In this document: positions 9,884 to 62,238 of the stretch, piece after piece
Position numbering within the stretch: position 1 is the first letter of the stretch
Layout: each line of letters begins with the position of its first letter
DNA from: Mycoplana dimorpha
GTDB lineage: Bacteria > Pseudomonadota > Alphaproteobacteria > Rhizobiales > Rhizobiaceae
Assembly (NCBI RefSeq): GCF_003046475.1
Contig: NZ_PZZZ01000002.1
Location: forward strand, 186,001 to 250,000
DNA: 64,000 bases
Direction of reading: 5' to 3'
Program-made: the position numbers and the translations under genes
The notes under the pieces: model-generated
Told to the model about the DNA's origin: nothing
Databases searched by the model: none
Seen by the model: only the letters and a program-made list of their open reading frames with translations

Positions 9884-9973
9884 GGACAGGTGGCCGAGTG
9901 GTTGAAGGCGCACGCCTGGAACGCGTGTATAGGGGCAACTCTATCGAGGGTTCGAATCCCTCTCTGTCCGCCA
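9884..9973 (+). tRNA. tRNA-Ser(GGA)
   Basis: Acceptor arms GGACAGG (9884-9890) and CTCTGTCC pair, and the CCA end is encoded at 9971-9973. The anticodon stem CACGC/GCGTG encloses the loop CTGGAAC with anticodon GGA. A long variable arm and the T arm GAGGGTTCGAATCCCTC follow, as expected for a class II serine tRNA of 90 nt. Its last 15 bases form part of the integration site of the adjacent element, which keeps the tRNA intact. Confidence 0.95.
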
Positions 9974-9976
9974 TTC
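9959..9976 (+). repeat. Left attachment site of the tRNA-Ser element
   Basis: CCTCTCTGTCCGCCATTC: the last 15 tRNA bases including CCA plus three more. It is identical to 13823-13840 and the flanking bases differ at once on both sides, so the identity block is exactly 18 bp. Confidence 0.9.
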
Positions 9977-10014
9977 ATCATTAATTTATAACCATAATTT
10001 TCCAATCGGATCGT

Positions 10015-10036
10015 TTGGGCACTAATTGGGCACTAA
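10015..10036 (+). repeat. Tandem 11-bp repeat at the left end (probable integrase arm site)
   Basis: Two head-to-tail copies of TTGGGCACTAA, overlapping the stop of the primase gene. The 8-bp core GGGCACTA recurs twice with the same 11-bp spacing at 13674-13692 near the other end. Paired short repeats near both ends are typical arm-type binding sites of tyrosine integrases; no binding data can be inferred directly. Confidence 0.65.
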
Positions 10037-11004
10037 GTCGTCGTGTGGTGGGCCATGGTTTCGCCGGTCGGCAGCGCCACGCTGGGCGCGGCTTGGTCCG
10101 CAGCTGCGCGCCCCTTACCGGGAAGCCCCAGCTGCCCCGCGATGCCGTCCAGCGCCGCGCACACGTCCGCCGCGGTGCGCAGTTCCCCCTGCCGGGCGTT
10201 GCGCTTGAGCTGCCACTCCGGCTCGGGCGCGGCCATCCGCAGAACCGCGCCCCGCTCCCGCTTCGTTGCGTTCGGCACGTTCACGGTGAAGGGCAGGCGG
10301 GCGATCCGCGCCGGGTCCGCCATGTTGTCGGCACCCAGCCGCGACATGGACGCGCCCAGAGGACCGGCAGAGGAAAGCACGTCGGCGGCGGACAGGTCTT
10401 GAATGGGCAGCCAAACATGGTAGCCGTTGCCGCTGTCAACGATGAGCATCGGGTCCAACCCCACCGACAGCGCGCTCACTGTCCGCGTCCAGTCCGTGTC
10501 CGTGGGCGGCGCGTCCTTCCGGTCCAGGTCAATTACCACGGCACGGCGCGCCACCACGTCCGCAGCCTTCCCTGGCCGGGACGATCCGGCCAAATCGGCA
10601 CGACGTGGGTTGATGCCCGCATAGAGGTTCCGCTTTCCGTTATGCTCACGGATGAAAGCCTCCAAGGCTGCGCGCTGGGTGGGATTGTCCAGCGCGCCAG
10701 ACAGGGACACGCCCCGCCCCCCTGCCGGGTCCAACGCGCGCAACTCGATCACATCGCCGGGTTTGAACGCTATGGAGATAGCGTCAAGCGCCATCGAGGG
10801 CGCGGGGCCATCGGCCAGCAGTGCGTTGAGTTTGTCCCGCAGCCCTGCGTCGGAGACCAAGCCGACGCGGTATTCCATACACGCTATCTCCGCCCGCTCC
10901 GGTGTGATTAGTTTGCGCGAGGCGCTGTCTTGCGCCAGGGCAAGCAGCTCGTTGCCAAGGCAGGCAGATTGCACCGCCGGGGCGGCTGGGGTAGTGATAT
11001 TCAT
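10033..11004 (-). CDS. Stand-alone archaeo-eukaryotic-type primase (RepB-primase-like)
   Basis: A 323-residue protein probably making primers for element replication. The AEP catalytic motifs are visible: VVIDLD with Asp159 and Asp161, SGNGYHVWL with His196, and DPARIARLPFTVN starting at Asp230, the pattern of RepB/pRN1-like primases. The roughly 130 N-terminal residues resemble the accessory part of phage and plasmid primases. There is no fused or adjacent helicase. The ATG has AAAGGAA at good spacing. It is the last gene of the element and its stop overlaps the left tandem repeat. Assignment is by motif; a replication role is inferred. Confidence 0.75.
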   Translation of the reverse strand: MNITTPAAPAVQSACLGNELLALAQDSASRKLITPERAEIACMEYRVGLVSDAGLRDKLNALLADGPAPSMALDAISIAFKPGDVIELRALDPAGGRGVSLSGALDNPTQRAALEAFIREHNGKRNLYAGINPRRADLAGSSRPGKAADVVARRAVVIDLDRKDAPPTDTDWTRTVSALSVGLDPMLIVDSGNGYHVWLPIQDLSAADVLSSAGPLGASMSRLGADNMADPARIARLPFTVNVPNATKRERGAVLRMAAPEPEWQLKRNARQGELRTAADVCAALDGIAGQLGLPGKGRAAADQAAPSVALPTGETMAHHTTT

Positions 11005-11058
11005 GTTGGTAATTCCTTTTCAGGGGCCGTTTCGCGTCGGGTGCGGAGCGGCACTTTG

Positions 11059-11316
11059 CTATGAGGGCATCCAGGCGGAGAGCCGGCGTTCCGCCTGCCG
11101 GTCAAACCACTCCTGAACTTCATCCGCCCGCCAGAAAGTCGCGCGACCAATCTTGAACGGTGCGGGGAGGCGGCGCGTCGTGTCCGGGTGGCGCAGCAGG
11201 TGGTAGACATAGCGCCGCGTCACCCCCAACCGGTCCGCCAAGTCTTGCGGGCGAATGGCGATTGGGTGCGGGTGTGGGTGCTTCTTTTCGCGATTGCGCA
11301 TGTTGTCATTGGACAT
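11059..11316 (-). CDS. AlpA-like helix-turn-helix regulator or excisionase
   Basis: An 85-residue MerR/AlpA-type winged helix: IRPQDLADRLGVTRRYVYHLL is the helix-turn-helix near residues 20-40, then RLPAPFKIGRATFWRADEVQEWF, the standard AlpA wing and terminal helix. In P4-like islands such proteins act as excisionases or activate the integrase gene. It lies 54 bp upstream of the primase and downstream of an intergenic stretch holding two palindromes, which may be its operators. Confidence 0.85.
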   Translation of the reverse strand: MSNDNMRNREKKHPHPHPIAIRPQDLADRLGVTRRYVYHLLRHPDTTRRLPAPFKIGRATFWRADEVQEWFDRQAERRLSAWMPS

Positions 11317-11333
11317 TTGTTGCCCCTTTCGTG

Positions 11334-11411
11334 TCTCGACTGTTCACGTCGAGAACATCGCAGGGGCGCGCGCATTCCACGGTATCAGAAACTGCCCGAC
11401 TTTCTGATACC
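11334..11411. promoter_or_regulatory. Two palindromes upstream of the alpA-like gene
   Basis: Inverted repeat 1: TCTCGAC (11334-11340) and GTCGAGA (11348-11354), 7-bp spacer. Inverted repeat 2: GGTATCAGAAA (11381-11391) and TTTCTGATACC (11401-11411), perfect over 11 bp with a 9-bp spacer. Both lie in the 108-bp gap between the unknown gene and the alpA-like gene. There is no T-run, so a simple terminator is unlikely; operators or a replication-origin structure are possible. Confidence 0.55.
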
Positions 11412-11424
11412 GCCAAAAGCCGTT

Positions 11425-12156
11425 CTAGTCGCGGTTGCGGCTACCGGGCCGGCCAAGCGCCAGCGCGATAATGTGCACCAATTCCTCGTTGGACTTGGCC
11501 CAAGGGATATCCATGACCCCAGCTTGCCCCGCCGCGAATGCCTCCGTGTAAAGCTCCCCGCCAGTGCCCCCAGCCTCCTTCTGCCAGCGGTTCAAGGACG
11601 CGATTTCCCGGCGTGTGCCCATGAGGTCGTGCCAAACCGCGTTGCGGGTCGCACCCGTTCGGCCCATGCGCCAGCGGATCACGCCAACCAGCTGCCGGCA
11701 GGCAGCCCCACGCAGGGCGGCGTTGCCATCCCTGGCGCTGAAGAGAATTTGCGGGTGACCTGCTCCCATGCCGTCGGACCCGCCAAGCATCACCCGGAGG
11801 TCATGTACAATAGCGGCCTGCCGGAAATTCCCCGGCAGCAACGACCCCAACTCCGACGGCATCAATCCTTGCCCCTCCGAGCGGCCCATGCTCAGCAGAA
11901 GCGCGTCCAGCAAGCCCAAGTGATACGCTCGGCGCTGCCGGTCGTTGAAGGTGTTGCGTGGACTGTCCGGTACGGCCCGAACGGCTTTCAGCCCGGCGTC
12001 GTGCAAGCCTTCGGTGATGCCCCGGCCAGCCGCCAGCATCCCGGCGAAATCCCAAAAGGCGTCCGGGTTCAGTCGCCCGTTGTCCTCCTCCCCGGTGTCC
12101 AGAAGCTTGTCCAGCGCATGGTGTAGCGCGGCCCGGCCAAACAATGACGCTGTCAT
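11425..12156 (-). CDS. Unknown element-encoded protein coupled to the integrase
   Basis: A 243-residue, probably soluble protein of no family I recognise. It is rich in short helical stretches and glycine, with no signal peptide or membrane segment; the terminal region contains WAKSNEELVHIIALALGRPG. Its ATG overlaps the integrase stop as ATGA, so it is translated from the same message and probably at a linked level. Possible roles include excision control, replication help or an anti-phage or superinfection function; none is supported by a motif. Confidence 0.75.
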   Translation of the reverse strand: MTASLFGRAALHHALDKLLDTGEEDNGRLNPDAFWDFAGMLAAGRGITEGLHDAGLKAVRAVPDSPRNTFNDRQRRAYHLGLLDALLLSMGRSEGQGLMPSELGSLLPGNFRQAAIVHDLRVMLGGSDGMGAGHPQILFSARDGNAALRGAACRQLVGVIRWRMGRTGATRNAVWHDLMGTRREIASLNRWQKEAGGTGGELYTEAFAAGQAGVMDIPWAKSNEELVHIIALALGRPGSRNRD

Positions 12157-13475
12157 GCCGTCCCCTCATCGCCATCGGTTACGAGGTCATCCCCCATGTC
12201 CCCTGCCCGGGTGGCCCCGGCACAGAGAGCGGCCCACGCCTCCATCATTGGCCTGCGCCGCTCATAGGCGGATTGGCGCATGTACGCACGTTCGACCGCG
12301 CCTAGTTGGTGCGCCAGTTGTTCCTCGATCAGTTCGCGCGGGAAGTCGGTGGCGGTGGCGGCCCAGCCCTTGAACGTCGCCCGCAGCCCGTGTGCGGTGT
12401 AGTCCTTGTAAGGCTCCATGCGCCGCATCAACATCAGCGCCGCCATTTCCGTGAGGGGCTTACCTTTGGGGGATGAAAACACATAGTCAGTGGGCTTCAC
12501 ATCGTGGCGGCGGATCTTGGCTTCGGCAAGGATTTCTGCCATGCGCGCCGTGATCGGCACTACATGGTCACGCCGCATTTTCATGCGCCCTGCCGGGACC
12601 GCCCATACGCGCCGCTCAAGGTCGATTTCATCCCATGTCGCAAAGCGGGCCTCACCTGTCCGGCAGGCGGCGAGGGTGATCCACTCCAGCATGAGCGCCG
12701 CCATGCTGTCGGCCTGCTTTGCGCGGACCGCCGCAACGAAGTCGGCAAGTTTGTCGTGGGGCACAGCTGGGTGGTGCCGGACCAATGTTTTGGGCGAGGG
12801 GAGGGTGGCGTCGAATTGCCGCCATGAGGCGGGATTGTCCCCCCGGTAGCGCCCGTTCTGGATTGCATGGGCGAAAAGGCGTTCGATCCGCTGGCGGCTG
12901 CGGCTGGCCGTCACCCCCTTTGTCGTCCATATCGGGTGCAGCACCGCCAGAATGTCCTCGCGAGTTATCTCCGCCAGCGGCTTCTCCCGCAAGGTTGCGG
13001 CGTGTGTGGCGAAGGTCGCCTGCCATTGCTGGATGTGGGCGGCGTTTGAAAAACCCGTCAGTGCGTAGGGCAAGAAGTGCTCGTCCGCGTACCGCCCGAA
13101 TGTCATTGCCTGGTCGGACGCGGCGCGGGCGAGTTCGGCCCCCCGCTGCCGGGCCGACGCTTGCGCACGGCGGTCTGCTTCAATGGGGTCCACGCCCTTC
13201 GCCAGCAGGCCACGCGCTGCCGCAGCCTTGTCCCGTGCAGCTGCCAACGTGATGCTGGGGAATGCCCCCAGGCCCATCGCCCGCTGGAAGGAATTGCTGC
13301 CCTTCGCGGCCTGTTCGGCCCGGTAGTCCAGGTCAGGGCTCACGAACTTGAAGGACCATTTCCCGGCACCTCTGGCCGTGGATCGGTAGAGAAGGCCGCC
13401 CCCATCAGCGAGGGCGCTGCCGGGGGTGGTGGCCTCAATCTGCTTGACGGTCAGGCGGTGCAGGGACTTCGACAT
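12153..13475 (-). CDS. int: Tyrosine-type site-specific integrase (DUF4102/P4 family)
   Basis: A 440-residue integrase. Residues 1-100 form the DUF4102 arm-binding domain (LTVKQIEATTPGSALADGGG, later GLGAFPSITLAAARD). Residues 125-220 are the core-binding SAM-like domain. The catalytic domain shows Arg272 in CRTGEARFATW, His362 and Arg365 in HGLRATFKG, His389, and the nucleophile Tyr398 in AYMR. Family members usually target tRNA 3' ends, matching the tRNA-Ser location. It transcribes towards the tRNA and its stop overlaps the next gene by 4 bp. Confidence 0.95.
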   Translation of the reverse strand: MSKSLHRLTVKQIEATTPGSALADGGGLLYRSTARGAGKWSFKFVSPDLDYRAEQAAKGSNSFQRAMGLGAFPSITLAAARDKAAAARGLLAKGVDPIEADRRAQASARQRGAELARAASDQAMTFGRYADEHFLPYALTGFSNAAHIQQWQATFATHAATLREKPLAEITREDILAVLHPIWTTKGVTASRSRQRIERLFAHAIQNGRYRGDNPASWRQFDATLPSPKTLVRHHPAVPHDKLADFVAAVRAKQADSMAALMLEWITLAACRTGEARFATWDEIDLERRVWAVPAGRMKMRRDHVVPITARMAEILAEAKIRRHDVKPTDYVFSSPKGKPLTEMAALMLMRRMEPYKDYTAHGLRATFKGWAATATDFPRELIEEQLAHQLGAVERAYMRQSAYERRRPMMEAWAALCAGATRAGDMGDDLVTDGDEGTA

Positions 13476-13650
13476 TACATTCCTCCATTAGTTCAGGCGG
13501 TGCGGATCGACCGGAGCGCGGCCCGGCAGGCGGCTGCATCAAGTCGTATGGCCGCAATCGCGCAGCCTCGGGGCAATGCAGGTCATGCCCGAAAGTTGGT
13601 CGGGGTCAGCGGCGGTAAGGCTGGTCGTTGTGGTGTGTGGGGCCGTCATC

Positions 13651-13692
13651 CATTTTAGTGCCTTGCCTTTCCAGGGCACTACATGGGCACTA
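13651..13692. repeat. Right-end repeat cluster (probable integrase arm sites)
   Basis: GGGCACTA occurs at 13674-13681 and 13685-13692, the same 11-bp spacing as at the left end. An inverted copy, ATTTTAGTGCC, lies at 13652-13662 and mirrors GGCACTAAAAT at 13686-13696. The cluster is within the integrase upstream region, so integrase binding could also repress its own promoter. Confidence 0.6.
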
Positions 13693-13822
13693 AAATTGGG
13701 GTAGCTGTCAATGCCCAATTGTTCCCGCTAGATCCGTGCGCGTTAGATAATTTGTTGAAAAACAAATAGAAATTAGGATGCTAGTTCCGCGGGGTTCATG
13801 CCTGTTCCTATGAGTTAGGCGG

Positions 13823-13840
13823 CCTCTCTGTCCGCCATTC
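13823..13840 (+). repeat. Right attachment site of the tRNA-Ser element
   Basis: Exact 18-bp copy of 9959-9976. It carries only the last 15 tRNA bases, so it is a remnant and not a second tRNA. Host sequence resumes immediately after it; no gene is seen between here and the response regulator stop. Confidence 0.9.
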
Positions 13841-40415: not shown

Positions 40416-41891
40416 ATGGCTATCGCACAAGAGCATGTCTTTGTGGCGGAGGAACCCTCCGACAAGCTCAGCTTGTTGCCGCTGACGGCCCTCGTTGTCG
40501 GCTCGATGATCGGTGGCGGCGTCTTCAACCTGCCGTCTGACATGTCGCGCGCTGCCTCTGCGGGCGCCATCCTTATCGGCTGGACGATCACCGGCCTCGG
40601 CATGCTGATGCTGGCCCTGGTGTACCAGTCGCTGGCCAACCGCAAGCCCGACCTGAACGCCGGCCCCTATGCCTATGCCAAGGCGGGCTTCGGTCCCTTC
40701 ATCGGCTTCAACAGCGCCTGGGGTTACTGGTTGAGCGCCTTTCTCGGCAATGTCGCCTACGCCGTCGCCATCTTCTCTGCGCTTTCTTTCTTCGTGCCTG
40801 CCTTCGGTGACGGGAACAACCTCCCCTCGATCGTGGGTGCCTCGCTCTGTCTGTGGCTGATTCACGCCCTTGTCCTGAAGGGAATCAAGCAGGCCGCGTT
40901 CGTCAACATCGTCACCACCATCGCCAAGCTGGTTCCGCTGTTCCTGTTCATCGTGATTGCGATCATCGCCTTCAATTGGAACAGGTTCACCTTCGATTGG
41001 GGACGTAGTGCGACGGGTGAAGGAGGCCCCGGGCTCGGCAGCATCCTCGATCAAGTCAAGAGCACCATGCTGGTCACGCTGTGGGTGTTCATCGGCATCG
41101 AGGGGGCGAGCGTCTACTCGGCCCGTGCGGCGCGGCGGTCGGATGTGGGCCGCGCCACCGTCATCGGCTTCCTCGGCGCGCTCGGCATCTATGTCCTGGT
41201 GTCGCTCCTGTCGACCGGCATCCTCAGCCAGCCGGAACTCGCCGGGCTGAAGGTGCCTTCGATGGCGGGCGTGCTGGAACCCCTGGTCGGACGGTGGGGC
41301 GCCTCGCTGGTTAACCTGGGACTGATGATCTCGGTCGGCGGCGCGTTCTTGTCCTGGACCCTGCTTTGCGCGGAGATCCCGTTCACTTGCGGGCGGGACG
41401 GGACCTTTCCCAAGTGGTTCGCGGCGGAGAACCCGAATGGCTCGCCGGTCAACGCGCTCTGGGCGACGAACATCCTCATTCAGGTGTTCCTGGTGCTCAG
41501 CTTCTTCTCAAAGAGCGCCTACCAGTTCTTCTATTTCATCGCGTCGGTCGCGATCCTGCCGCCTTACGTGTTCTCCGGGGCCTACGCGTTCAAGCTGGCG
41601 CTTTCCGGCGAAACCTACGGCGGCGCAGACGACCGGGTGCGTCGGCGTGATCTCTGGATCGGCCTGATCGCCACCCTCTACGGCCTCTGGCTGGTCTATG
41701 CCGCGGGGCTCAGCTACCTGCTGATGTGCTCGGTGCTCTTTGCCCCCGGCATCCTGGTCTACGCGTGGGCTCGGAGGGAACACGGCGAGCCGGCCTTCGT
41801 CGGCAAGGAACTTTTCATTGCGGCGGGTATCGGCCTGCTGGCCGTGCTCGCCGTCTATCTCATGTGGACGGGGACGATCACTCCGCTTTAG
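40416..41891 (+). CDS. arcD: Arginine:ornithine antiporter (APC superfamily)
   Basis: 491 residues with about 12-13 membrane helices. The opening LTALVVGSMIGGGVFNLPSD is the substrate-binding first helix of the basic amino acid/polyamine antiporter family, and GPYAYAKAGFGPFIGFNSAWGY follows. Placement directly before arcA supports exchange of arginine for ornithine. The ATG at 40416 gives the best family start; an earlier GTG at 40377 is in frame. Confidence 0.9.
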   Translation: MAIAQEHVFVAEEPSDKLSLLPLTALVVGSMIGGGVFNLPSDMSRAASAGAILIGWTITGLGMLMLALVYQSLANRKPDLNAGPYAYAKAGFGPFIGFNSAWGYWLSAFLGNVAYAVAIFSALSFFVPAFGDGNNLPSIVGASLCLWLIHALVLKGIKQAAFVNIVTTIAKLVPLFLFIVIAIIAFNWNRFTFDWGRSATGEGGPGLGSILDQVKSTMLVTLWVFIGIEGASVYSARAARRSDVGRATVIGFLGALGIYVLVSLLSTGILSQPELAGLKVPSMAGVLEPLVGRWGASLVNLGLMISVGGAFLSWTLLCAEIPFTCGRDGTFPKWFAAENPNGSPVNALWATNILIQVFLVLSFFSKSAYQFFYFIASVAILPPYVFSGAYAFKLALSGETYGGADDRVRRRDLWIGLIATLYGLWLVYAAGLSYLLMCSVLFAPGILVYAWARREHGEPAFVGKELFIAAGIGLLAVLAVYLMWTGTITPL

Positions 41892-41936
41892 GCGCCACCG
41901 CCCGATTTGCATGTTTGCTGCCGTGGAGGTTCGACA

Positions 41937-43163
41937 ATGCGCAGTTTCGGGGTCCATTCGGAAGTCGGCAAACTGAGAACGGTGATGGTCTGCAGGCCGT
42001 CCCTGGCCCATCAGAGGTTGACGCCGGGCAATTGCCACGACCTTCTGTTCGACGACGTGATCTGGGTTCACGAGGCTCAGAAGGATCACTACGATTTCGT
42101 GCTGAAGATGCAGGAGCGCGGCGTCGAGGTGCTCGAGCTCCATGATCTGCTTGCCGAGACGCTGGCCGACGCCGAGGCGCGCCGCTTTGTCCTCGACCGC
42201 CGTATCGTGCCCAATGTCCTCGGCATCCAGATCGCCGAGGCAATGCGGCCATGGCTGGACGAAATGCCGGCCCAGAACCTCGCCGCCTTCCTGATCGGCG
42301 GGATTGCGGTTTCCGATCTGCCGGAAATGCGTGGCAAGGGATTGATGCTGGAGGCGCTCGGCGCGCCCGAGTTCGTCATTCCGCCGATTCCCAACACGCT
42401 GTTCCAGCGTGACCCTTCCTGCTGGATCTACGGCGGCGTGACCTGCAATCCGATGTTCTGGCCGGCGCGCCGCGCCGAAACCCTCGTCCAGCGGGCGGTC
42501 TACAAGTTCCACCCGGACTTCAAGGGTGGCGATTTCCGCATATGGTGGGGCGATTCCGACGAACAGTTCGCCAATGCGACGATGGAAGGCGGTGACGTCA
42601 TGCCGATCGGCAACGGCGTCGTGCTGGTCGGGATGGGCGAACGCACCACCTATCAGGCGGTCGGCCAGGTGGCGCAGGCGCTTTTCAAGGCCAAGGCGGC
42701 CACGCGCGTGATTGCCTGCCTGATGCCGAAGAGCCGCGCAGCAATGCATCTCGATACGGTGTTCAGTTTCTGCGACCGCGATGTTGTCACCCTGTTCGCC
42801 GACGTCGTCGACCAGATCCGCTGCTACAGCGTCCATCCGGTGTCGGATGACGGCGCGTTCGAGGTCCGCCCCGAATCAAAGCACATGCTGGAGGTCGTTG
42901 CCGAAGCGCTCGGCGTTCAGAAGCTGCGGACCGTCGCCACCGGCGGCAACGCCTACGAGGCGGAGCGCGAGCAATGGGACGACGGCAACAATGTCGTGGC
43001 GATCGAGCCTGGCGTGGTCGTCGCCTACGACCGCAACACCTACACCAACACGCTTCTTCGCAAGGCGGGCGTCGAGGTGATCACCATCCGCGGCTCCGAA
43101 CTCGGCCGCGGCCGCGGCGGCGGGCACTGCATGACCTGCCCGATCTGGCGCGAACCCGCCTGA
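41937..43163 (+). CDS. arcA: Arginine deiminase
   Basis: Hydrolyses arginine to citrulline and ammonia, the first step of the deiminase pathway. 408 residues. The guanidine-modifying fold has [12 protein letters not shown] near residue 156, [10 protein letters not shown] near 215, HLDTVFSF near 270, and the catalytic cysteine near the C-terminus in [13 protein letters not shown]. The start is the ATG giving [14 protein letters not shown], with GGAGGT seven bases before it. arcB follows after 39 bp. Confidence 0.97.
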
Positions 43164-43202
43164 AGACGGCGACCCCAACGTTCAAAGGTTTGGAGCAGCA
43201 TC

Positions 43203-44207
43203 ATGAGCCTCAATCTTCGCAACCGCTCGCTTCTCACGGTGCAGGACTACACGCCGCGCGAGTTCCGCTTCCTTCTCGATCTCGCCCGCGACCTGAAGCG
43301 GGCCAAGTATGCGCGCACGGAACAGAAGCATCTGGAGGGCAAGGAGATCTGCCTGATCTTCGAAAAGACCTCGACCCGCACGCGCTGCGCCTTCGAGGTC
43401 GCCTGCTCCGACCAGGGCGCCAACGTGACCTACCTGGATCCGGCGGGCTCGCAGATCGGCCACAAGGAATCCTTCAAGGACACCGCCCGGGTGCTTGGTC
43501 GCATGTATGACGCCATCGAGTATCGCGGTTCGGCACAGGCAGGCGTCGAGACGCTCGCCAAGTACGCCGGCGTTCCCGTCTACAACGGCCTGACCGACGA
43601 ATACCATCCCACGCAGATGCTGGCCGACGTGATGACGATGCGCGAGTTCAGCGACAAGCCGATCGCCGACATCAAGTACGCCTATGTCGGCGACACCCGT
43701 TCCAACATGGGGCACTCGCTGCTGATCGTCGGCTGCCTGATGGGCATGGATGTCCGGATCTGCGGGCCGAAGTCGCTCTGGCCGGCCGACGAATATCGCA
43801 AGATTGCCGAGGGCCTGGCTGAAAAGTCCGGCGCCCGCGTGATGGTCACCGAGGACCCGGCCGAGGCCGTCAAGGGCGTCGATTTCATCCACACCGATGT
43901 CTGGGTTTCGATGGGCGAGCCTAAGGAGGTCTGGAAGGAGCGCATCAATCTGTTGACGCCCTACCAGGTCAACGCGGCGCTGATGAAGGCGAGCGGCAAC
44001 GCCCAAGTGAAATTCATGCATTGCCTGCCCGCATTCCACGACACCGAAACCGTGGTCGGCAAGCAGATCGCTGCGGACTACGGCATGTCGGACGGGCTGG
44101 AGGTCACGAACGAGGTGTTCGAGTCGGAGGCCAATATTGCCTTCGAGCAGGCCGAAAACCGCCTGCACACGATCAAGGCGCTGCTCGTCGCGACACTGGG
44201 AGACTGA
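43203..44207 (+). CDS. arcB: Ornithine carbamoyltransferase (catabolic context)
   Basis: 334 residues. The carbamoyl phosphate site is [12 protein letters not shown] near residue 55, with [12 protein letters not shown] near 135 and the ornithine loop [10 protein letters not shown] near 273. In this operon it should run as citrulline phosphorolysis to ornithine and carbamoyl phosphate. arcC starts 2 bp after its stop. The sequence cannot by itself exclude an anabolic role. Confidence 0.96.
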
Positions 44208-44209
44208 CC

Positions 44210-45145
44210 ATGCGCATTGTGATTGCTTTGGGCGGGAATGCGCTCCTGAAGCGCGGCGAACCGATGACCGCAGAGACGCAGCGCCGCAATATCCGCGATG
44301 CCGCCATGGCGATCGCTCCCATCACCAAGGAACATCAGGTGGTGATCACCCATGGCAACGGGCCCCAGGTCGGCCTGCTGGCGCTGCAGGGCGCCGCCTA
44401 CAAGCCGGACGAAGCCTACCCGCTCGACGTGCTCGGCGCCGAGACGGAGGGAATGATCGGCTACATGCTCGAGCAGGAACTCGGCAACCTCCTGCCCTTC
44501 GAAGTACCCTTCGCCACGCTGCTGACCATGGTCGAAGTCGACGGCGACGATCCCGGCTTCGCCAATCCGACCAAGTTCGTCGGCCCCGTCTACGCCAAAC
44601 CCGACGCCGACCGGCTGGCGGCCGAGAAGCAGTGGATTTTCAAGCAGGACGGAGACAAGTGGCGCCGCGTCGTGCCATCGCCGATGCCGAAGCGGATCTT
44701 CGAGATCCGGCCGGTGAAGTGGCTGCTCGAGAAGGGGACGATCGTGATCTGTGCCGGCGGCGGGGGTATCCCGACCCTGTACGAGAAAGGCAAGGAGCGC
44801 TTGCTCGTGGGCGTCGAGGCGGTGATCGACAAGGACTTCTGCTCGGAACTGCTGGCGCGGGAGCTCGATGCGGACCTGTTCATCATGGCGACCGACGCCC
44901 AGGCCGTCTTCACCGACTGGGGCAAGCCGGAGCAGAAGGCCATCCATCGCGCCAACCCGGCATCGATCGGCGGTCACAGCTTTCCGGCCGGATCCATGGG
45001 GCCGAAGGTCGAGGCGGCGTGCCGCTTCGCCAGCAAGACCGGCAAGTCGGCGGCGATCGGCGCCCTGGCCGATATAGCCGCAATTGTCCAGGGGGACCGC
45101 GGAACGATCGTCAATGCGGCCTTCGAAGAGATGACGTGGCACTGA
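44210..45145 (+). CDS. arcC: Carbamate kinase
   Basis: Makes ATP from carbamoyl phosphate and ADP, the energy-yielding step of arginine fermentation. 311 residues of the amino acid kinase fold: [15 protein letters not shown] at the start, [13 protein letters not shown] near 46, and [12 protein letters not shown] and [11 protein letters not shown] in the C-terminal half. The start is fixed by the 2-bp gap after arcB. A strong hairpin lies 10 bp after its stop. Confidence 0.96.
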
Positions 45146-45154
45146 AATATGGGT

Positions 45155-45185
45155 CCGGGTCTGCCGAAACGTTCGGCAGATCCGG
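45155..45185. repeat. Strong hairpin between arcC and the NhaC-family gene
   Basis: Arms 45155-45168 and 45172-45185 pair over 14 bases (one G-U on the plus strand) around a 3-base loop; the core is TCTGCCGAA/TTCGGCAGA. No T-run follows, so full termination is doubtful. It may stabilise the arc mRNA or attenuate expression of the downstream antiporter. Confidence 0.65.
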
Positions 45186-45288
45186 AATAGGACATGCGCA
45201 CATCTAAGGGCCTGACTCGGGATCGCGTGAAGCACGTGACCCGCTTCGATGCCTGAGCGTGTGGCAGTTGCGGTTGTGGGGAGCCGTC

Positions 45289-46794
45289 ATGGTCGATAGC
45301 GGTGAACTCAGGGCGTCCGGCAGCGTCAAGACGCCGTCGGTGCTGGATGCGGCCGTTCCCTGTTTCGCGCTGATCGTTCTTCTGGCGCTTTCGTACCTGC
45401 TGTTCGGCGACACGGCGGCGCAGGGGCCGAACCAGGTGGCGCTTGCCTTCTCGGCGCTGATCGCCGCAGGCATCGCCTACAAGAACGGCATGCCGTGGTC
45501 CGGCATCCGTGATGCGGTCGTGCAAGGGATCGCAACCGGCCTGCCGGCGATCATGATCCTGCTAGCGGTCGGGGCGCTGATCGGCACCTGGGCCTTGAGC
45601 GGGACGATCATGGCGATGGTCTACTACGGCCTGAAGCTGCTGAGCCCGACCTACTTTTACGCCACTACGGCCCTCGTCTGCGCGGTGGTCGCCTTCGGCA
45701 TCGGCAGTTCGTGGACGGTTGCCGGAACGATCGGCATCGGCCTGATGGGGGTAGCCGCGCAGATGGGTCTGTCGCCCGCGATCGCAGCCGGCGCGGTCAT
45801 CTCGGGAGCGTATTTCGGCGACAAGGCATCGCCGCTGTCCGATACCGTCAATCTCGCCGCCGCCACGGCCGGATCGGACGTCTACGCGCATATCCGGGAG
45901 TCCCTGTGGACCTCGGTTCCGGCGCTTGCCCTTGCGGTGGCGCTCTTCGCCTTGCTCGGCAGGCCCGGCAATTTTGATGCCACCTCCATTCTCTGGGCGA
46001 TCGAGGCCAAGGTCAGGATTTCGCTTTGGGCCTTCCTGCCGCTGATCCTCGTCTTCCTGTTGTCGGTGCTGCGCGTCGCGCCGTTCGTCGCGATCTTTTC
46101 CGGAGCCCTGGCCGGAGCCGTTCTGGCGGTCATCCTGGATCCGGCGCGGGTGGTTGCCTTCGCCAATGCGCCGCAGCTTCCCACGGCGCTGGCGCTGCTG
46201 AAGGGCTGCTGGGCCGCTCTTGCCACGGGCCATACCGGGGCGACCGGTGAAAAGGCCATCGACGCGATCCTCAGCCGCGGCGGAATGGCGAGCATGATGA
46301 ACACTGTCTGGCTCATCATAACCGCGCTGGCGTTTGGGGCAGTCGTCGAGCATGCGGGGTTGCTTGACCGGCTGATCGGCCCGCTCGTGGCACGGACACG
46401 TTCAAACACCGGCCTCGTAGCAGCGGTGGCGGGCACGGCCGTGCTTTCGAACGTGGTCACATCGGATCAGTACATCTCGATCGCGCTCCCAGGGCGCCTG
46501 TTCCAGAGCGCCTTCGCAGAGCGCGGACTGGCCCCCGCGATGCTGTCGCGGGTCATCGGCGACACGGCGACGGTGACGTCGCCGCTGGTGCCCTGGAACA
46601 GTTGCGGGGCCTACATGTCCTCCGCCCTGGGCGTCGGCACGCTGGCCTATGCCGGCTTCTGCTTCTTCAATCTGCTCAATCCACTGGTGACGATCGCCTT
46701 CACCCTGCTGGGCTGGCGGGTGATTACCCTGCCGCGGGCCGAGAGCGTCGATACGAACGAACCGCCAAAGCCCCGCCTGCGGGTGGTACGATGA
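45289..46794 (+). CDS. NhaC-family Na+/H+ or amino acid antiporter
   Basis: 501 residues with about 11-12 membrane helices. Family stretches include GIGSSWTVAGTIGIGLMGVA near residue 140, SGAYFGDKASPLSDTVNLAA near 178, and DTATVTSPLVPWNSCGAYMS near 430. NhaC-family members exchange Na+ and H+, and some beside arginine-catabolism genes exchange amino acids. Being last in the arc operon, it may help pH balance or act as a second arginine/ornithine exchanger. The ATG after GGGGAG is preferred over the earlier GTG. Confidence 0.88.
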   Translation: MVDSGELRASGSVKTPSVLDAAVPCFALIVLLALSYLLFGDTAAQGPNQVALAFSALIAAGIAYKNGMPWSGIRDAVVQGIATGLPAIMILLAVGALIGTWALSGTIMAMVYYGLKLLSPTYFYATTALVCAVVAFGIGSSWTVAGTIGIGLMGVAAQMGLSPAIAAGAVISGAYFGDKASPLSDTVNLAAATAGSDVYAHIRESLWTSVPALALAVALFALLGRPGNFDATSILWAIEAKVRISLWAFLPLILVFLLSVLRVAPFVAIFSGALAGAVLAVILDPARVVAFANAPQLPTALALLKGCWAALATGHTGATGEKAIDAILSRGGMASMMNTVWLIITALAFGAVVEHAGLLDRLIGPLVARTRSNTGLVAAVAGTAVLSNVVTSDQYISIALPGRLFQSAFAERGLAPAMLSRVIGDTATVTSPLVPWNSCGAYMSSALGVGTLAYAGFCFFNLLNPLVTIAFTLLGWRVITLPRAESVDTNEPPKPRLRVVR

Positions 46795-55728: not shown

Positions 55729-56382
55729 TCACGGACACCAGGACTGGCGCTCGCCCGTCCATGGGCGTGCCAGCCCCTTGGCGACCAGGGCATCACCGAT
55801 CGACCGACCGTTGCGGCGCACGATCCGCAGCTTGCGGCCATGCTGGTCTTCGTCGATCGGCTTCCACGCCGCGAGTTCGAATTCGCCCGCGTTCAGCAGG
55901 ATGCGCAAAGCTTCCTTGGCGTCGCCACCGAGGTTGCGCTCACGGTCGCATTTCGCCTCCTTCGTGGCCGGCACATAGATGTCGGCCACCCGTATTTGCT
56001 CGCCGCGGTAGATGAAATTGCCACCGTCGATGATGCAATTGTCCTGCCGGATCCCGCAGTAGAAGAAGGTGGCGCCGCCGGCGCCAGGGTTTGCCGAGGC
56101 GGGGGGCCCGGGCTTGGCGGCGGCCGTCTCCGACGGCCTGCTATCCGGCGTGGGGGCAGCGATCCGTTGCGGTGTGGTCACGGGCGTGCGCACGGGAGTC
56201 TTCGTCTCGGTCCCGCGGCGCCAGAGCGCCTGCCAATCATGCATGGCGGGCAGGTGTTCGCGGCCCAGCATTGCTGCGATCAGCGCAGAGCCGAGCAGGT
56301 ACCAGGGCAACATGCGGCCACGTCGGGAGGCGGGCTTGCGTGTTCTGCTCGACGGTCGTCTCTTGGTCTTGCGGGGGGCCAT
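55729..56382 (-). CDS. Membrane-anchored thermonuclease-like protein
   Basis: 217 residues. A basic N-terminus and one helix (LPWYLLGSALIAAML) are followed by a proline- and alanine-rich linker and a C-terminal SNase-like fold. The domain retains GNFIYRGEQIRVADIYVP, AKEALRILLNAGEFEL and GDALVAKGLARPW. The usual catalytic Arg/Glu pattern of staphylococcal nuclease around RLIGIDTPE is not preserved (RVADIYVPA), so nuclease activity is doubtful. The start at 56382 discards an upstream extension without a membrane-compatible sequence. Confidence 0.75.
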   Translation of the reverse strand: MAPRKTKRRPSSRTRKPASRRGRMLPWYLLGSALIAAMLGREHLPAMHDWQALWRRGTETKTPVRTPVTTPQRIAAPTPDSRPSETAAAKPGPPASANPGAGGATFFYCGIRQDNCIIDGGNFIYRGEQIRVADIYVPATKEAKCDRERNLGGDAKEALRILLNAGEFELAAWKPIDEDQHGRKLRIVRRNGRSIGDALVAKGLARPWTGERQSWCP

Positions 56383-56598
56383 TTCGAATCCTTGGCTCTC
56401 CTGGCCGTAGTAGCCCCGGTTCGGTCGAGCTGTCAAAGCGCCGCGTAGCGCCGTCACCCGCCGGCCGGAACGGCGTCAGTGACAGGCGTAAAGATTTCTT
56501 TACTTCCAACGGTCACGGTTTTTTGTTCATCTGCCGTTCAGAAATCCCGCTTTCGTGCTGCGCCGTGGTGTAGCCTGACGCGGCAAAGGAGAGACGAG

Positions 56599-56724
56599 AT
56601 GATTCGCACCACCCTGTCCGTGACGGTGTTTGTCACGTTCGTCGCCATCATGTTCGGCCTTGCGTTGCTGCCGGACCTGGTCGACGCGATGAACGATCCC
56701 GAACAGGTCGCCGTAGTCCAATAG
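56599..56724 (+). CDS. 41-residue single-pass membrane protein
   Basis: The ATG has AAAGGAGAG six to eight bases upstream. The product is one hydrophobic helix (TLSVTVFVTFVAIMFGLALL) with a short acidic tail ending EQVAVVQ. It lies in the gap between the nuclease-like and DUF883-like genes, in its own direction. Unknown function; small stress membrane proteins have this form. Confidence 0.55.
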   Translation: MIRTTLSVTVFVTFVAIMFGLALLPDLVDAMNDPEQVAVVQ

Positions 56725-56962
56725 GCGGCTGCGCCCGGCGGGTCGTCGGGCAGGACCTCGCGGTGCAAAGCATGATGGTGACGCGGGCGAAGTGTCCAGC
56801 GGCCAGCATCTACTTGAGCACTCGGCGGCCGTTCTAACCGTGCCGTGGCAGGAACCTCATTGGCGCTTCCTCGTTTCAGAGGACGAAGCTTGGGCCACTG
56901 ATTGGCGATGCGGCGCCTGGAGCTTTCACGGCTTTTATAACCTGCTGAAAATGGAGGTTGTC

Positions 56963-57283
56963 ATGGCAGAGTCCGATCCTCAGAAACAGGTCACGGCGCT
57001 TCGCGAAGAAATCGACAAGCTCCGCGCCGAACTTGCAGCGCGGACCGCGGAGACCTACGAGGGTATGCGCGAGCGCGCCGGAAAGACGGGGCAGTCCGTC
57101 CGGGCAGCGGCGAGGGAGGGTGCCGACTACGTCCGCTCCGAAGGGGCCGCTGTGGCAGATACCGCGCGAGCGCATCCGGCTGCCACGTCCGCCTTGGTTC
57201 TGACGGTCGGGTTCGCCGGACTGATCCTCGGCTATCTCCTCGCCAGTGCGACGGAGCCTGCGCCTCGCCGCTACTGGCGCTGA
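56963..57283 (+). CDS. DUF883 (ElaB/YqjD) family membrane protein
   Basis: 106 residues. An amphipathic coiled coil (VTALREEIDKLRAELAARTA) is followed by a polar region and a C-terminal helix (TSALVLTVGFAGLILGYLLA), the ElaB/YqjD layout; such proteins tether ribosomes to the membrane in stationary phase in E. coli. GGAGG lies five bases before the ATG at 56963, which decides the start. Followed on the opposite strand by a protein of similar design. Confidence 0.75.
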   Translation: MAESDPQKQVTALREEIDKLRAELAARTAETYEGMRERAGKTGQSVRAAAREGADYVRSEGAAVADTARAHPAATSALVLTVGFAGLILGYLLASATEPAPRRYWR

Positions 57284-57322
57284 GTTGGCCTGCGGCCTGC
57301 GAGAGCGGGCCGCGTCAGGGTG

Positions 57323-57679
57323 TCAGCGGCCGCGCAGCCCGCACACGTAACCAACAAGTGCTGCACCGATCAGGGCGGTGAACGGATTGGCAACCACGGT
57401 GGCCCGTACGTCCTCACGCAGTGAATTCACCTGCGAGACGGCATACTGGCTGCTGCTCTCGGCGAGCAGCCCGAGCGTGGCGCGAAGCTGCGCCACCTCA
57501 TCCTTCAGCGCAGCAACCTGTTCGGCGATCGCTTCCTTGGCGGCCTCTGCGTCCGGTGCCTCCATTTCCGCTCCGGTTGCAGCGGTCTCGCTGATCATGT
57601 CCTTGCCGGATTTCGCAGGCTTCCCATCGCCAACGACGCCGAGCGGCGTACGCAGGCTGCTTTCTTTCTCGTCTGCCAT
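57323..57679 (-). CDS. DUF883-like small membrane protein
   Basis: 118 residues. An acidic N-terminal 55 residues is followed by a coiled coil (AIAEQVAALKDEVAQLRATL) and a C-terminal segment (VVANPFTALIGAALVGYVCG), again ElaB/YqjD-like. GGAGAAATCACA precedes the ATG at 57679. The frame upstream to 57832 is rejected because it lacks a ribosome site and family features. It converges with the DUF883 gene at 57283. Confidence 0.7.
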   Translation of the reverse strand: MADEKESSLRTPLGVVGDGKPAKSGKDMISETAATGAEMEAPDAEAAKEAIAEQVAALKDEVAQLRATLGLLAESSSQYAVSQVNSLREDVRATVVANPFTALIGAALVGYVCGLRGR

Positions 57680-57884
57680 TGTGATTTCTCCCTGGAATGA
57701 TGCCTCTGCGCCGTAGGAACTGGAAAGGCAGCCGTCCGGTTCCCGATAGAAACAGGCCGGTCGGAGGGAGCGCAAATCGGTGCGGCGGCATGTTTTCTTT
57801 TTGTTAACCATTCGCGCCGATGCTTGCGGCAACCGAACCTTCCTGGATCATGTCACACGGCTGTTACCCGGGCAATCTAGGAAG

Positions 57885-58022
57885 AGGGTGCAAGGCAGTT
57901 CGCTGCACTTGGCGAGTTCAGGATTGTCCTGCTGATGCTGACCACGGATGTACTGGCAGCGCAGGGGGCATCGCCCCGGTTTGCACCGGGCATGGGAAGC
58001 GGGGTCAAAGCCCCGCTTTTTC
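57885..58022 (+). ncRNA. Candidate small RNA ending in a terminator
   Basis: No frame in this stretch is convincing, yet it holds a series of short hairpins: GTGCA..TGCAC, CAGGATTGTCCTG, GGGGGCATCGCCCC, then an intrinsic terminator at 57998-58022. The pattern is that of an independent small RNA, or of the 3' part of a structured leader. The promoter is not identified; the 5' end given is a guess. The rest of 57680-58144 holds no gene I can support. Confidence 0.35.
57998..58022 (+). terminator. Intrinsic terminator (plus strand)
   Basis: AGCGGGG (57998-58004) pairs with CCCCGCT (58011-58017) around a 6-base loop, followed by TTTT. No protein gene ends nearby on this strand, which is the main reason to suspect a small RNA before it. 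Confidence 0.7.
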
Positions 58023-58090
58023 CATTTCCCCCAGTTCCCGTTCCGGACATTCGCCGGTCGCGGTCATTTCGCACAAACATCGGGTATGAA

Positions 58091-58119
58091 ACAAAAAACC
58101 CGGCCGCGAGGCCGGGTTT
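58091..58119 (-). terminator. Intrinsic terminator after cycM
   Basis: A perfect 10-bp stem (AAACCCGGCC at 58096-58105, GGCCGGGTTT at 58110-58119) with a 4-base loop. On the minus strand it is followed by a T-run, 26 bp past the cycM stop. Confidence 0.85.
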
Positions 58120-58144
58120 GCGCTAGGCTGTGTGGTGAAAAGGC

Positions 58145-58915
58145 TTACTGCGCTGCCGGTGCCGCCGGAGCGGTCTCCGTAGCTGCGGGTGCCTGGCCTG
58201 CAGTACCTTCCGCCGGGGCCGGAGCAGCACCTTCGGCCGGCGCCGGAGCGGCACCTTCTGCCGGGGCCGGGGCAGCGCCCTCTGCCGGGGCCTGCGCAGC
58301 ATTATCCGCGGCCGAGGGTGCGGGAGCTTCGCCGCCGGTGGCTGCTGCGCCGTCTGCCGAGGCTTCCGGCAGCGGAGCCGGGTTGTCGGAAAGCGTGCGC
58401 AGATAGGCGAGCAGGTTGGCGCGCTCGTCGTCCTTCTTCAGGCCGGCAAAGCCCATTGCGGTGCCCGCGATGTACTTCTTCGGTGCAGTGAGGAAATGGT
58501 TCAGGTGGTCAAAGTCCCAGACCTGCTTGCCGCCTTCGGAAAACGCCGTCATGGCAGCCGAGTAGCTGAAGCCCTGATGCGAAGCGATCGGGCGATTGAC
58601 GATGTCCCACAGATCCGGGCCTACCTTGTTCGGGCCGCCCTTTTCTCCGCTGTGACATGCGGCGCACTTCTTGAAGACCGCCTCGCCGGCGGTTGCATCG
58701 GCACTGGCGAGCAGCGTCGCCACGGGCACGGCCGCCGTTTCGGCGCCGCCGCCCTGGCCGCCGGCTTCGGCGCCACCTTCTTCGGCCACGATCGCAAAGC
58801 CTTCCTTCTCCGGAGCCCCGGAGTGGAAGATGCCTTCCGATGCGATCGACACCGACATCAGCACGAACACGGTACCGAGAAGGGCGCCCATGCCCATGTT
58901 CACATAAGAGTTCAT
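58145..58915 (-). CDS. cycM: Membrane-anchored cytochrome c (CycM type) with repeated Ala/Pro tail
   Basis: 256 residues. An N-terminal anchor ([20 protein letters not shown]) is followed by a linker rich in Gly, Ala and Glu, a class I cytochrome c domain with [19 protein letters not shown] and [15 protein letters not shown] (Met ligand), and a tail of about 75 residues. The tail repeats an 8-residue APAPAEGA unit three to four times. CycM-type cytochromes carry electrons between bc1 and aa3 oxidase. GGGGAG precedes the ATG at 58915. Confidence 0.92.
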
Positions 58916-59063
58916 CCGCAGCTCCCCTGGAGCCGGCACATCTCAGCCGGCCAGTCTTGAAATCGCGCGGAACCTATGTCTTTTGCTGCTTCGTTGCAAC
59001 AGTGATTGTGCACGTTGTGCTGAGACGTTTTGACACTTTTCGCGCGGTCCCGAAGGGTTGGCC

Positions 59064-59819
59064 ATGAAACTTCCGAAGTTCGAAGAAACGCTGGTGCTGA
59101 TCCCCGCCCGCATGGCCTCCACGCGCCTGCCGGGCAAGCCACTGGCCGACATTGCCGGAGTGCCGATGATCGTGCAGGTGGCACGGCGCGCAGCTGAATC
59201 CGGCGCCGGGCGCGTCGTCGTCGCCGTCGACCATCCGCAGACCTTCGATGCCGTCGCGGCCGCCGGTTTCGAGGTCGTCAAGACCCGCGAGGATCATCAA
59301 TCCGGTTCCGACCGGATCTACGAGGCGCTGCTGAAATGCGATCCTGATCGCCGCGTCCAAGTGGTGATAAACGTGCAGGGCGACCTGCCTACCATCGATC
59401 CCGCAACGATCCGCGCCGCGCTCAACCCGCTCACCGATCCCGCGACCGACATTGCCACCCTGACGACGGAAATCACCGACCCGGATGAAAAGACCAATCC
59501 GAACGTCGTCAAGGTGGTCGGTGCACCGATTGGTGAGAACCGGCTCCGCGCTCTCTACTTCACGCGTGCGACCGCTCCGTACGGCGAGGGGCCGCTCTAC
59601 CATCACATTGGGCTCTACGCCTATCGCCGCCAGGCGCTCGAAACCTTCGTCTCGCTGCCGCCATCGACCCTGGAGCGGCGCGAGTCGCTTGAGCAGTTGC
59701 GCGCGCTCGAGGCCGGTCTTCGCATCGACGTGGAGATCGTTGACACCGTTCCGCTGGGTGTCGATACTCCGGCCGACCTTGAGAAGGCTCGCCGGCTGCT
59801 TTCGGCCGTGCCCCGTTGA
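59064..59819 (+). CDS. kdsB: 3-deoxy-manno-octulosonate cytidylyltransferase
   Basis: Activates KDO to CMP-KDO for lipid A core synthesis. 251 residues. Motifs: [18 protein letters not shown] with the nucleotide-binding arginine and lysine, DHQSGSDRI near residue 82, VINVQGDLP near 97, and HIGLYAYRR near 180. The ATG at 59064 is preferred over a TTG two codons before it. Its stop overlaps the pheA start. Confidence 0.95.
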
Positions 59820-60685
59820 TGGATCGGCCCATGATGCAGAAAAACAACAAGATCGCCTTTCAGGGCGACTTCGGCGCCAATTCGGACATGGCCTGCCGCG
59901 ACATGTTCCCGCAGATGGAGCCGCTGCCGTGCCAGACGTTCGAGGAAGCCTTCCTCGCCGTGGAAAACGGCGAGGCCGATCTGGCGATGATCCCGATCGA
60001 GAACACGCTCGCCGGCCGTGTCGCCGACATCCATCATCTGCTGCCGGAGTCGCGCCTGCACATCGTCGGCGAATATTTCATGCCGATCCGGTTCCAGTTG
60101 ATGGTCCTGCCGGGCGTGACGAAGGACGAGATCCGCACCGTCCACAGCCATGTCCATGCGCTCGGCCAATGCCGCCGGATCGTGCGGATGAACGGATGGA
60201 AGCCGGTCATCGCCGGCGATACCGCCGGCGCTGCCAAGCTCGTCGCCGAAACCAGGGACCGCAGCATGGCGGCGCTCGCGCCGCGCCTGGCCTCCGAACT
60301 GTACGGGCTGGAGATCATCGCGGAGAACGTCGAGGATTCGGAGAGCAACGTCACCCGGTTCGTGGTGCTTGCGCGCGAGCCGGTCCTCCCCGCACGCACC
60401 CGGCCGGACGAGGTCATCGTCACCACCTTCGTCTTCAATGTCCGCAACATCCCGGCGGCGCTCTACAAGGCGCTTGGCGGCTTCGCCACCAACAGCATCA
60501 ACATGACGAAGCTGGAAAGCTACCAGATCGGCGGCCGGTTCTACGCAACCCAGTTCTATGCCGACATCGAGGGGCATCCGGACGATGCCAACGTGCGCCG
60601 CGCCCTCGAGGAACTCCGGTTCTTCTCGGAGAAGGTTCGCGTCCTCGGCTCCTATAGGGCCCACCCTATGCGGCTGAGCCTCTGA
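59819..60685 (+). CDS. pheA: Prephenate dehydratase
   Basis: Monofunctional enzyme converting prephenate to phenylpyruvate in phenylalanine synthesis. 288 residues. The catalytic domain has IAFQGDFGANSDMA at the start, MIPIENTLAGRVADIH near residue 58 and the conserved T-R-F in NVTRFVVL near 180. An ACT regulatory domain covers the last 85 residues (SINMTKLESYQIGGRF). The start overlaps kdsB; ATGs at 59831 or 59834 are alternatives. Confidence 0.94.
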   Translation: MDRPMMQKNNKIAFQGDFGANSDMACRDMFPQMEPLPCQTFEEAFLAVENGEADLAMIPIENTLAGRVADIHHLLPESRLHIVGEYFMPIRFQLMVLPGVTKDEIRTVHSHVHALGQCRRIVRMNGWKPVIAGDTAGAAKLVAETRDRSMAALAPRLASELYGLEIIAENVEDSESNVTRFVVLAREPVLPARTRPDEVIVTTFVFNVRNIPAALYKALGGFATNSINMTKLESYQIGGRFYATQFYADIEGHPDDANVRRALEELRFFSEKVRVLGSYRAHPMRLSL

Positions 60686-60736
60686 CCTGCCGCCGGGCCG
60701 CAGAGCCGCAACTGAGCGGTTGCCTTTCGGACAGGA

Positions 60737-62118: not shown

Positions 62119-62238
62119 GTCCTGCCGCTCCTTCGTCGCGCCGCCCCATTGTGAGTCATGCCACGGCTACGCCGCCCGCTCCAACAGTTTTTTGGCGCTC
62201 CGGCTTGCATTCTGGCGCAATATTGCCGATATGGAAGC

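What the first reader, a model, noticed from the sequence alone, without database searches (positions are those of the whole stretch)
9959..13840. Minimal 3.9-kb tRNA-Ser element with integrase, unknown gene, AlpA and AEP primase
An exact 18-bp direct repeat starting in the tRNA 3' end bounds only four genes. It has a complete integrase (Arg272, His362, Arg365, Tyr398) and a primase but no helicase, capsid, packaging, relaxase or known cargo gene. That is smaller than described P4-like or PICI-like satellites I know of. It may be a new minimal satellite, or a trimmed remnant.
Basis: partly seen in the sequence, partly recalled or inferred. Interest (0 to 1): 0.7.

Follow-up and report, generated by a model that had tools for sequence, protein, structure and literature searches.

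The report
Stripped-down satellite-like element at tRNA-Ser
A 3.9-kb DNA element sits beside a serine tRNA gene and keeps the genes for moving in and out of the chromosome, but its relatives carry a longer copying gene, so it looks like a cut-down member of a known kind of phage-dependent element.

Summary
An exact 18-bp repeat (9959-9976, 13823-13840) bounds a 3,864-bp insert behind an intact tRNA-Ser(GGA). It holds four co-directional genes: integrase, unknown gene, AlpA-like protein, AEP primase.
The layout is that of the published PICMI satellites (PMC10803314): int, a gene overlapping int by ATGA, alpA, prim, with the target gene on the prim side. Of 35 relative loci from sampled related genomes, 20 have int>alpA>prim.
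Two features set this copy apart. Its primase stops after the AEP domain: 72 residues follow the aligned AEP block, against 514 or more in the 35 relatives. Its stop codon touches the attachment arm site, leaving no room for the iteron arrays that follow prim in 18 of 34 tested relatives. The best sister found (tRNA-Arg, 9.7 kb) has paired arm sites at the same offsets, plus a helicase-type domain, ten iterons and further ORFs.
I read it as a deletion derivative that kept integration/excision and lost replication. A working helicase-free minimal satellite is not excluded. It fails the PICMI definition (no DUF3987/DUF5906 primase, no fis site). It is smaller than PICMI115 (6.1 kb), called in 2024 the smallest characterised satellite: a new variant of a known kind.

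The parts
9884..9973 (+). tRNA-Ser(GGA), intact integration target
9959..9976 (+). attL: 18-bp repeat, 15 nt of tRNA 3' end plus TTC
10017..10036 (+). doubled arm-type site GGGCACTAATTGGGCACTAA, 59 bp (midpoints) from the attL repeat; overlaps the primase stop codon
10033..11004 (-). AEP primase (RepB'-like), 323 aa, no helicase part; residues 298-323 predicted with very low confidence (probably disordered)
11059..11316 (-). AlpA-like HTH_17 protein, presumed excisionase/regulator
11380..11412 (.). perfect inverted repeat (12-bp arms, 9-bp spacer) in the 108-bp region upstream of alpA; candidate operator or hairpin
11425..12156 (-). gene of unknown function; overlaps int by ATGA; positional counterpart of PICMI iolg
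12153..13475 (-). tyrosine integrase, catalytic residues complete
13674..13693 (+). second doubled arm-type site GGGCACTACATGGGCACTAA, 148 bp (midpoints) from the attR repeat
13823..13840 (+). attR: 18-bp repeat identical to attL

Best explanation
It is an integrated element of the int - iolg - alpA - prim type (PICMI-like) that has lost its replication half. Shown: both att repeats, a complete integrase gene, an AlpA-like gene, doubled arm-type sites at both ends, an AEP-only primase, no iteron array, and no room for one behind the primase. Inferred: an ancestor resembled the tRNA-Arg sister (about 9.7 kb: AEP fused to a helicase, iteron origin behind it, then further genes up to the target tRNA). 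One internal deletion (or a recombination) joined the AEP linker to the arm site, removing helicase, origin and the gene-bearing zone. Integrase plus AlpA, perhaps with the unknown gene, would still excise and insert the element at tRNA-Ser. It should not replicate alone and would depend on a helper or full-length relative, or move only rarely.
For: Relatives: two searches with the primase (17 of 396 other genomes; 18 of 393 others) gave 37 places; a profile confirmed an AEP primase in 35, of which 20 carry int>alpA>prim co-directionally. All 35 have 514-688 residues after the column of window residue 252, the window 72. Of the 36 proteins scanned (window included), AAA_25 is found in 14, VapE-like in 13 and DUF5906 in 13; the window's protein has no Pfam hit. 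Iterons at the prim 3' end: 18 of 34 exceed all 100 shuffles, the window none; with 60 shuffles 19 of 34 at the 3' end against 0 of 34 at the 5' end, 1 of 35 mid-gene and 0 of 32 further away. Sister L097: 14-bp repeat at tRNA-Arg, integrase paired with the window's at 100/100, AEP clade of window, L097 and L021 97/88. In both elements the best 20-mer pair between the two ends, of 24,100 pairs each, falls at nearly the same offsets: 59/148 and 60/147 bp.
Against: No close relative or intermediate shows the deletion. Iterons are not detected in 16 of 34 relatives, L021 included, so lack of iterons alone does not prove loss of an origin; the iteron test was set up after the array in L097 had been seen. 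The shortened primase is an uninterrupted ORF with GC3 0.81, like the other genes, and a confident fold, so it is not visibly decaying. Free-standing RepB' primases of plasmids work with a separate helicase (recalled). The arm-site match is modest on its own (1 of 60 shuffles reach it in the window, 2 of 60 in L097). The integrase tree pairs L021 with the phage-record copy and not with the window; all four together have only 69/30. The AEP tree carries a warning that a long branch (L172) meets this group. No activity was tested.
Confidence: 0.62

Rival explanations
1. A complete, working minimal satellite: the AEP primase acts alone, as RepB' does, borrowing the DnaB or helper-phage helicase, with an origin of another type, for example the structured 108-bp region in front of alpA.
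For: Intact ORF with coding-like GC3; AEP model pLDDT 81 with RepB' as best PDB match; both ends and arm sites intact; the 108-nt region folds much better than its shuffles (z -5.4, 0 of 200) and holds a perfect 12-bp inverted repeat.
Against: No second AEP-only copy among 35 relatives; collection scans found no relative or only the two full-length ones; the structured region also fits a promoter/operator.
Confidence: 0.2
2. A dead remnant: deletion happened in place and the element no longer moves.
For: Helicase and iterons missing; own genome has a single primase and integrase match of this kind and no match to the HK97-type capsid family PF05065, so no resident helper of that kind was found.
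Against: All four ORFs open, integrase catalytic set complete, att repeats identical and arm sites kept at both ends, the left one directly at the deletion edge.
Confidence: 0.16
3. An integrative element spread by conjugation (IME-like) rather than by phages.
For: Small integrase-bearing elements of this sort exist (recalled).
Against: No relaxase match among the four proteins; gene order matches phage satellites. oriT was not searched for.
Confidence: 0.03

Closest known systems
PICMI (phage-inducible chromosomal minimalist islands), Vibrionaceae; PMC10803314
   Same: int, gene overlapping int by ATGA (in 14 of 35 PICMI subfamilies), alpA, prim; direct repeat upstream of int; target gene on the prim side; no capsid genes; very small.
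   Different: 3.9 instead of 6.1 kb (PICMI115; mean 6.7 kb in Vibrionaceae); tRNA-Ser instead of fis; primase lacks DUF3987/DUF5906; not in Vibrionaceae; no helper known.
Gram-negative PICIs including HE-PICIs; PMC10111431, PMC6092414
   Same: int, alpA, pri; HE-PICIs have co-oriented doubled motifs flanking the attP centre (81 and 132 bp there, sum 213; here 59 and 148, sum 207).
   Different: Those are 10-20 kb with iteron origin and late-gene zone; motif sequence differs, and that paper did not find the doubled motif in other PICIs, fis PICIs included.
Element at tRNA-Arg in L097 (same contig as JAIUPA010000024.1 by length and match; metagenome-assembled genome)
   Same: integrase 46%, AlpA 41% (46 residues matched), AEP 36% identical; same orientation; nearly the same arm-site offsets.
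   Different: 9.7 kb, primase-helicase of 859 aa (AAA_25), ten iterons, further ORFs, no ORF of 90 aa or more found between int and alpA.
Element in L021 (same contig as JALHQA010000002.1 by length and match; Hyphomicrobiales metagenome-assembled genome)
   Same: all four genes in the same order, unknown gene included (remote, z 5.3).
   Different: primase 806 aa with PriCT-2, VapE-like and DUF5906 domains; element boundaries not found.
RepB' primase (PDB 3h20, 3h25; that it comes from plasmid RSF1010 is recalled)
   Same: free-standing AEP primase of similar size; best structural match (Foldseek 6.3e-6).
   Different: TM-scores only 0.36-0.38 by query length, 18% identity; the plasmid has its own helicase and origin (recalled).

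Membership tests
PICMI | tyrosine or serine integrase (PF00589 among the listed models) | tested here: met
   PF00589 1.6e-15; definition
PICMI | AlpA (PF05930 or PF12728) | tested here: met
   PF12728 29 bits over cut-off 27; PF05930 below cut-off
PICMI | primase with DUF3987 or DUF5906 | tested here: not met
   no Pfam family on the 323-aa primase
PICMI | integration at fis | tested here: not met
   repeat starts in the 3' end of tRNA-Ser(GGA)
PICMI | gene overlapping int (frequent, not mandatory) | tested here: met
   4-nt ATGA overlap at 12153-12156
PICMI | helper-phage-induced excision and concatemer packaging | not testable with these tools
   needs infection experiments
Gram-negative PICI | int, alpA and pri in one direction | tested here: met
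Gram-negative PICI | iteron replication origin | tested here: not met
   no 8-mer with 4 or more copies in 400 bp; best 500-bp window has 3 copies
Gram-negative PICI | size 10-20 kb with further zones | tested here: not met
   3,864 bp, four genes
P4-like satellite | alpha-type primase-helicase and capsid-control genes (recalled) | tested here: not met
   no helicase domain in the primase; no room for further genes beside the four
Integrative mobilisable element | relaxase or oriT | tested here: inconclusive
   no relaxase match among four proteins; oriT not searched

The most novel reading that the evidence does not exclude
A functional satellite reduced to integrase, excision factors and a free-standing AEP primase: no helicase and no iteron origin of its own, spreading by borrowing helicase and origin recognition from a helper, or parasitising full-length satellites as a satellite of a satellite.
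Probability: 0.2. Interest if true: 0.65.

Novelty: new variant of a known kind. Interest (0 to 1): 0.42.

Why it matters
It shows the PICMI-like layout at tRNA sites in what appears to be Hyphomicrobiales (order inferred from the title of a same-order relative). The PICMI authors' relaxed model found 135 elements, 67 of them in Vibrionaceae, and they report complete PICMIs only in Vibrio, so the layout elsewhere is partly known but little described. The element shows how far such DNA can be cut down while keeping both ends intact. The comparison also places a candidate iteron origin behind the primase-helicase gene in about half of the relatives tested, and shows one AEP clade joined to two different helicase types. 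That gives a direct test of the minimal gene set for excision as against replication.

Tried and rejected
Chance repeat: rejected, exact 18 bp starting in the tRNA 3' end, no third copy. Close relatives or empty sites in the genus: 0 of 6 other genomes have the primase. All 6 have the tRNA-Ser and no second 13-mer of the tRNA end in about 18 kb behind it. The first 6 kb behind the tRNA match neither the element nor the window's right flank in any of the 6, while 5 of the 15 congener pairs share DNA there. The right flank gave only matches of 34-75 bp, on other contigs, in those genomes. So no clean empty site could be shown. Collection scans: searches found no relative; one search found only the two known as L021 and L097. 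Integrase: 0 of 396 other genomes at E 1e-80 (a strict threshold that hides L021-like matches). 57 IMG/VR loci carry integrase relatives, but the primase is found in none of the stretches held. No plasmid match to the integrase at 1e-60. Plasmid hits to the primase were short pieces of Clostridioides RepA. Unknown gene: no family, structure model unusable (pLDDT 40). One weak hit with stops inside (28%, E 6.3e-4, G287); the stretch around it has no match to the other three proteins. Promoter and terminator scans gave no more than shuffles. Direct repeats were sought in the 20 module loci: L097 gave one at a tRNA, three others gave 13-16 bp repeats not checked further, 16 none. Loci without a confirmed AEP (L037, L098) were dropped from the 37 before counting; L175 was too short for the iteron test. 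ORF starts between int and alpA were chosen by script, so the overlaps counted are approximate.
Full report
What is there. The window holds tRNA-Ser(GGA) at 9884-9973. An exact 18-bp repeat at 9959-9976 and 13823-13840 covers the last 15 nt of the tRNA plus TTC. Between them lie four minus-strand genes: integrase 12153-13475, unknown 11425-12156, AlpA-like 11059-11316, primase 10033-11004. The integrase stop and the start of the unknown gene overlap by ATGA (12153-12156). GC3 is 0.78-0.81 in all four, so all look like normal coding genes.

Proteins. The integrase has the arm, middle and catalytic Pfam domains and the invariant residues R272, K299, H362, R365, H389, Y398 in a three-way alignment. 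The AlpA-like protein passes HTH_17 only and matches phrog_66, excisionase and transcriptional regulator, at 2.4e-8. The primase has no Pfam match but matches phrog_2478. A 12-sequence alignment gave a model with mean pLDDT 81, whose best PDB matches are RepB' primase at 6.3e-6 and 6.9e-5, with modest TM-scores of 0.36-0.38 by query length. The D159/D161 pair is kept in at least 90% of 36 aligned proteins; that these are the AEP metal-binding residues is recalled. The last 26 residues have pLDDT under 50. The unknown protein has no family match below 0.01.

Relatives. The primase was searched in samples of the order (18 of 397 genomes, own included) and of the family (19 of 394, own included); the two samples may share genomes. 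The closest hits were 45% (order) and 36% (family) identical. I fetched all 37 non-own places. A profile search confirmed an AEP primase in 35, not in L037 and L098. In 20 of these 35 an integrase, an AlpA and the primase follow one another in the same direction. A candidate ORF between int and alpA was found in 11 of 20, and in 9 its chosen start overlaps int. Only the one in L021 clearly resembles the window's unknown protein (z 5.3, 1 of 300 shuffles as good; the next, L023, has z 2.9; BLASTP E 0.041 for L021). So L021 keeps all four genes in the window's order.

What is missing. After the column of window residue 252, the 35 relatives have 514 to 688 further residues and the window 72 (L032 is the longer piece of a split gene, L178 lies at a contig end). 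Pfam finds AAA_25 in 14 of the 36 scanned proteins, VapE-like in 13 and DUF5906 in 13 (overlaps between these counts were not resolved, and not every protein was shown to have a helicase: L023 gave no ATPase match). The two nearest relatives differ in kind: L021 has PriCT-2, DUF5906 and VapE-like, L097 has AAA_25. The window's AEP groups with them (97/88; 100/99 with a phage-record fragment whose own 3' part is cut off), among proteins that otherwise have the long C-terminal part. Loss on the window's branch is therefore the shorter account. The tree tool warns of a long branch, L172, meeting this group.

Origin. In L097 ten copies of ACTGGAGC lie within 250 bp, about 0.1-0.35 kb behind the primase stop. 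Testing 500 bp at the primase 3' end, 18 of 34 loci exceed all of 100 dinucleotide shuffles, 11 of them among the 20 module loci. With 60 shuffles, 19 of 34 do so at the 3' end, 0 of 34 at the 5' end, 1 of 35 mid-gene and 0 of 32 about 2 kb further on. The test was framed after the first arrays had been seen. I take these as iteron origins (inference). The window has no such array anywhere in the element, and only 56 bp lie between the repeat and the primase stop codon. Sixteen relatives, L021 included, also show no array by this test.

Ends. The window has GGGCACTAATTGGGCACTAA at 10017-10036 and GGGCACTACATGGGCACTAA at 13674-13693, midpoints 59 and 148 bp from the repeats. L097 has a different doubled motif at 60 and 147 bp. 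In each element this is the best of 24,100 20-mer pairs compared between the two ends. Taken alone the match is modest (1 of 60 and 2 of 60 shuffles reach it). HE-PICIs have co-oriented doubled motifs at 81 and 132 bp of the attP centre, possibly bound by the integrase arm domains; that paper did not find the motif in other PICIs (PMC10111431, section 19 read; passages). The left site touches the window's primase stop codon, so the presumed deletion stopped where the attachment site begins.

Integrases. The window's integrase pairs with that of L097 at 100/100. L021's pairs with the copy in the phage record at 100/99, and the four together have only 69/30, so integrase and primase histories are not shown to be the same for L021.

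Known counterpart. PICMI115 of Vibrio chagasii is 6,110 bp with six genes (int, iolg with ATGA overlap, alpA, prim, up1, up2), 17-bp repeats, next to fis (PMC10803314, sections 6 and 10 read; passages). There int, alpA and iolg are needed for excision, prim raises copy number, and alpA expression activates the element without phage. A relaxed model found 135 elements, 67 in Vibrionaceae; incomplete PICMI-like variants were seen in other species but complete ones only in Vibrio. By their model the window element lacks the required primase domain and the fis site, so it is not a PICMI, though excision probably works in the same way (inference). PMC6092414 (passages) describes E. coli PICI origins as two iteron sets flanking an AT-rich region.

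Genome context. The own genome has one match each to this primase and integrase and no match to the HK97-type capsid family PF05065 (4 of 14 control genomes ring), so no resident full-length relative and no prophage of that capsid kind were seen. Other helpers were not searched. In the genus, 0 of 6 other genomes have the primase, and none has the window's right flank within 6 kb behind the tRNA, so an empty site was not shown.

Literature limits. Searches returned no paper on a helicase-free satellite of this layout in Alphaproteobacteria among the listings I saw (6 to 20 papers each); the library lacks most subscription papers.

Verdict. A real, complete-ended, PICMI-like element, most likely a deletion derivative without replication functions; new variant of a known kind.

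Noticed in passing
window 11317-11424 (inverted repeat 11380-11412): The 108-bp region in front of alpA folds (minus strand, as DNA) as two hairpins, z -5.4 against shuffles, one with a perfect 12-bp stem; operator, attenuator or initiation site unknown.
   Followed up: partly
L097 6962-7212 and loci L167, L168, L173, L176, L178, L031: Iteron-like arrays behind AEP primase-helicase genes, mostly with a different repeat unit in each; 18 of 34 loci by shuffle test.
   Followed up: partly
L163 (MZ436628.1) 1-2538: The record of Microcystis phage Mwe-Yong1, Mu-like by its annotation, begins inside an AEP primase followed by AlpA and an integrase of this same group; it may be a satellite-like element or host DNA at the phage end, and the host label may be doubtful.
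   Followed up: partly
L021 8240-10660; L097 7305-9884: Members of one AEP clade are fused to different ATPases (DUF5906/VapE-like and AAA_25), suggesting helicase swapping at the linker behind the AEP domain.
   Followed up: partly
L032 7824-10121: The AEP primase-helicase frame is interrupted (pieces of 163 and 597 aa).
   Followed up: no
window 40416-46736 and 55729-64000; L071: In congener G002 the DNA behind the same tRNA-Ser matches window 40.4-46.7 kb (inverted) and then 55.7-64 kb (direct), so the window carries about 30 kb of other DNA, element included, between the tRNA and these blocks.
   Followed up: partly
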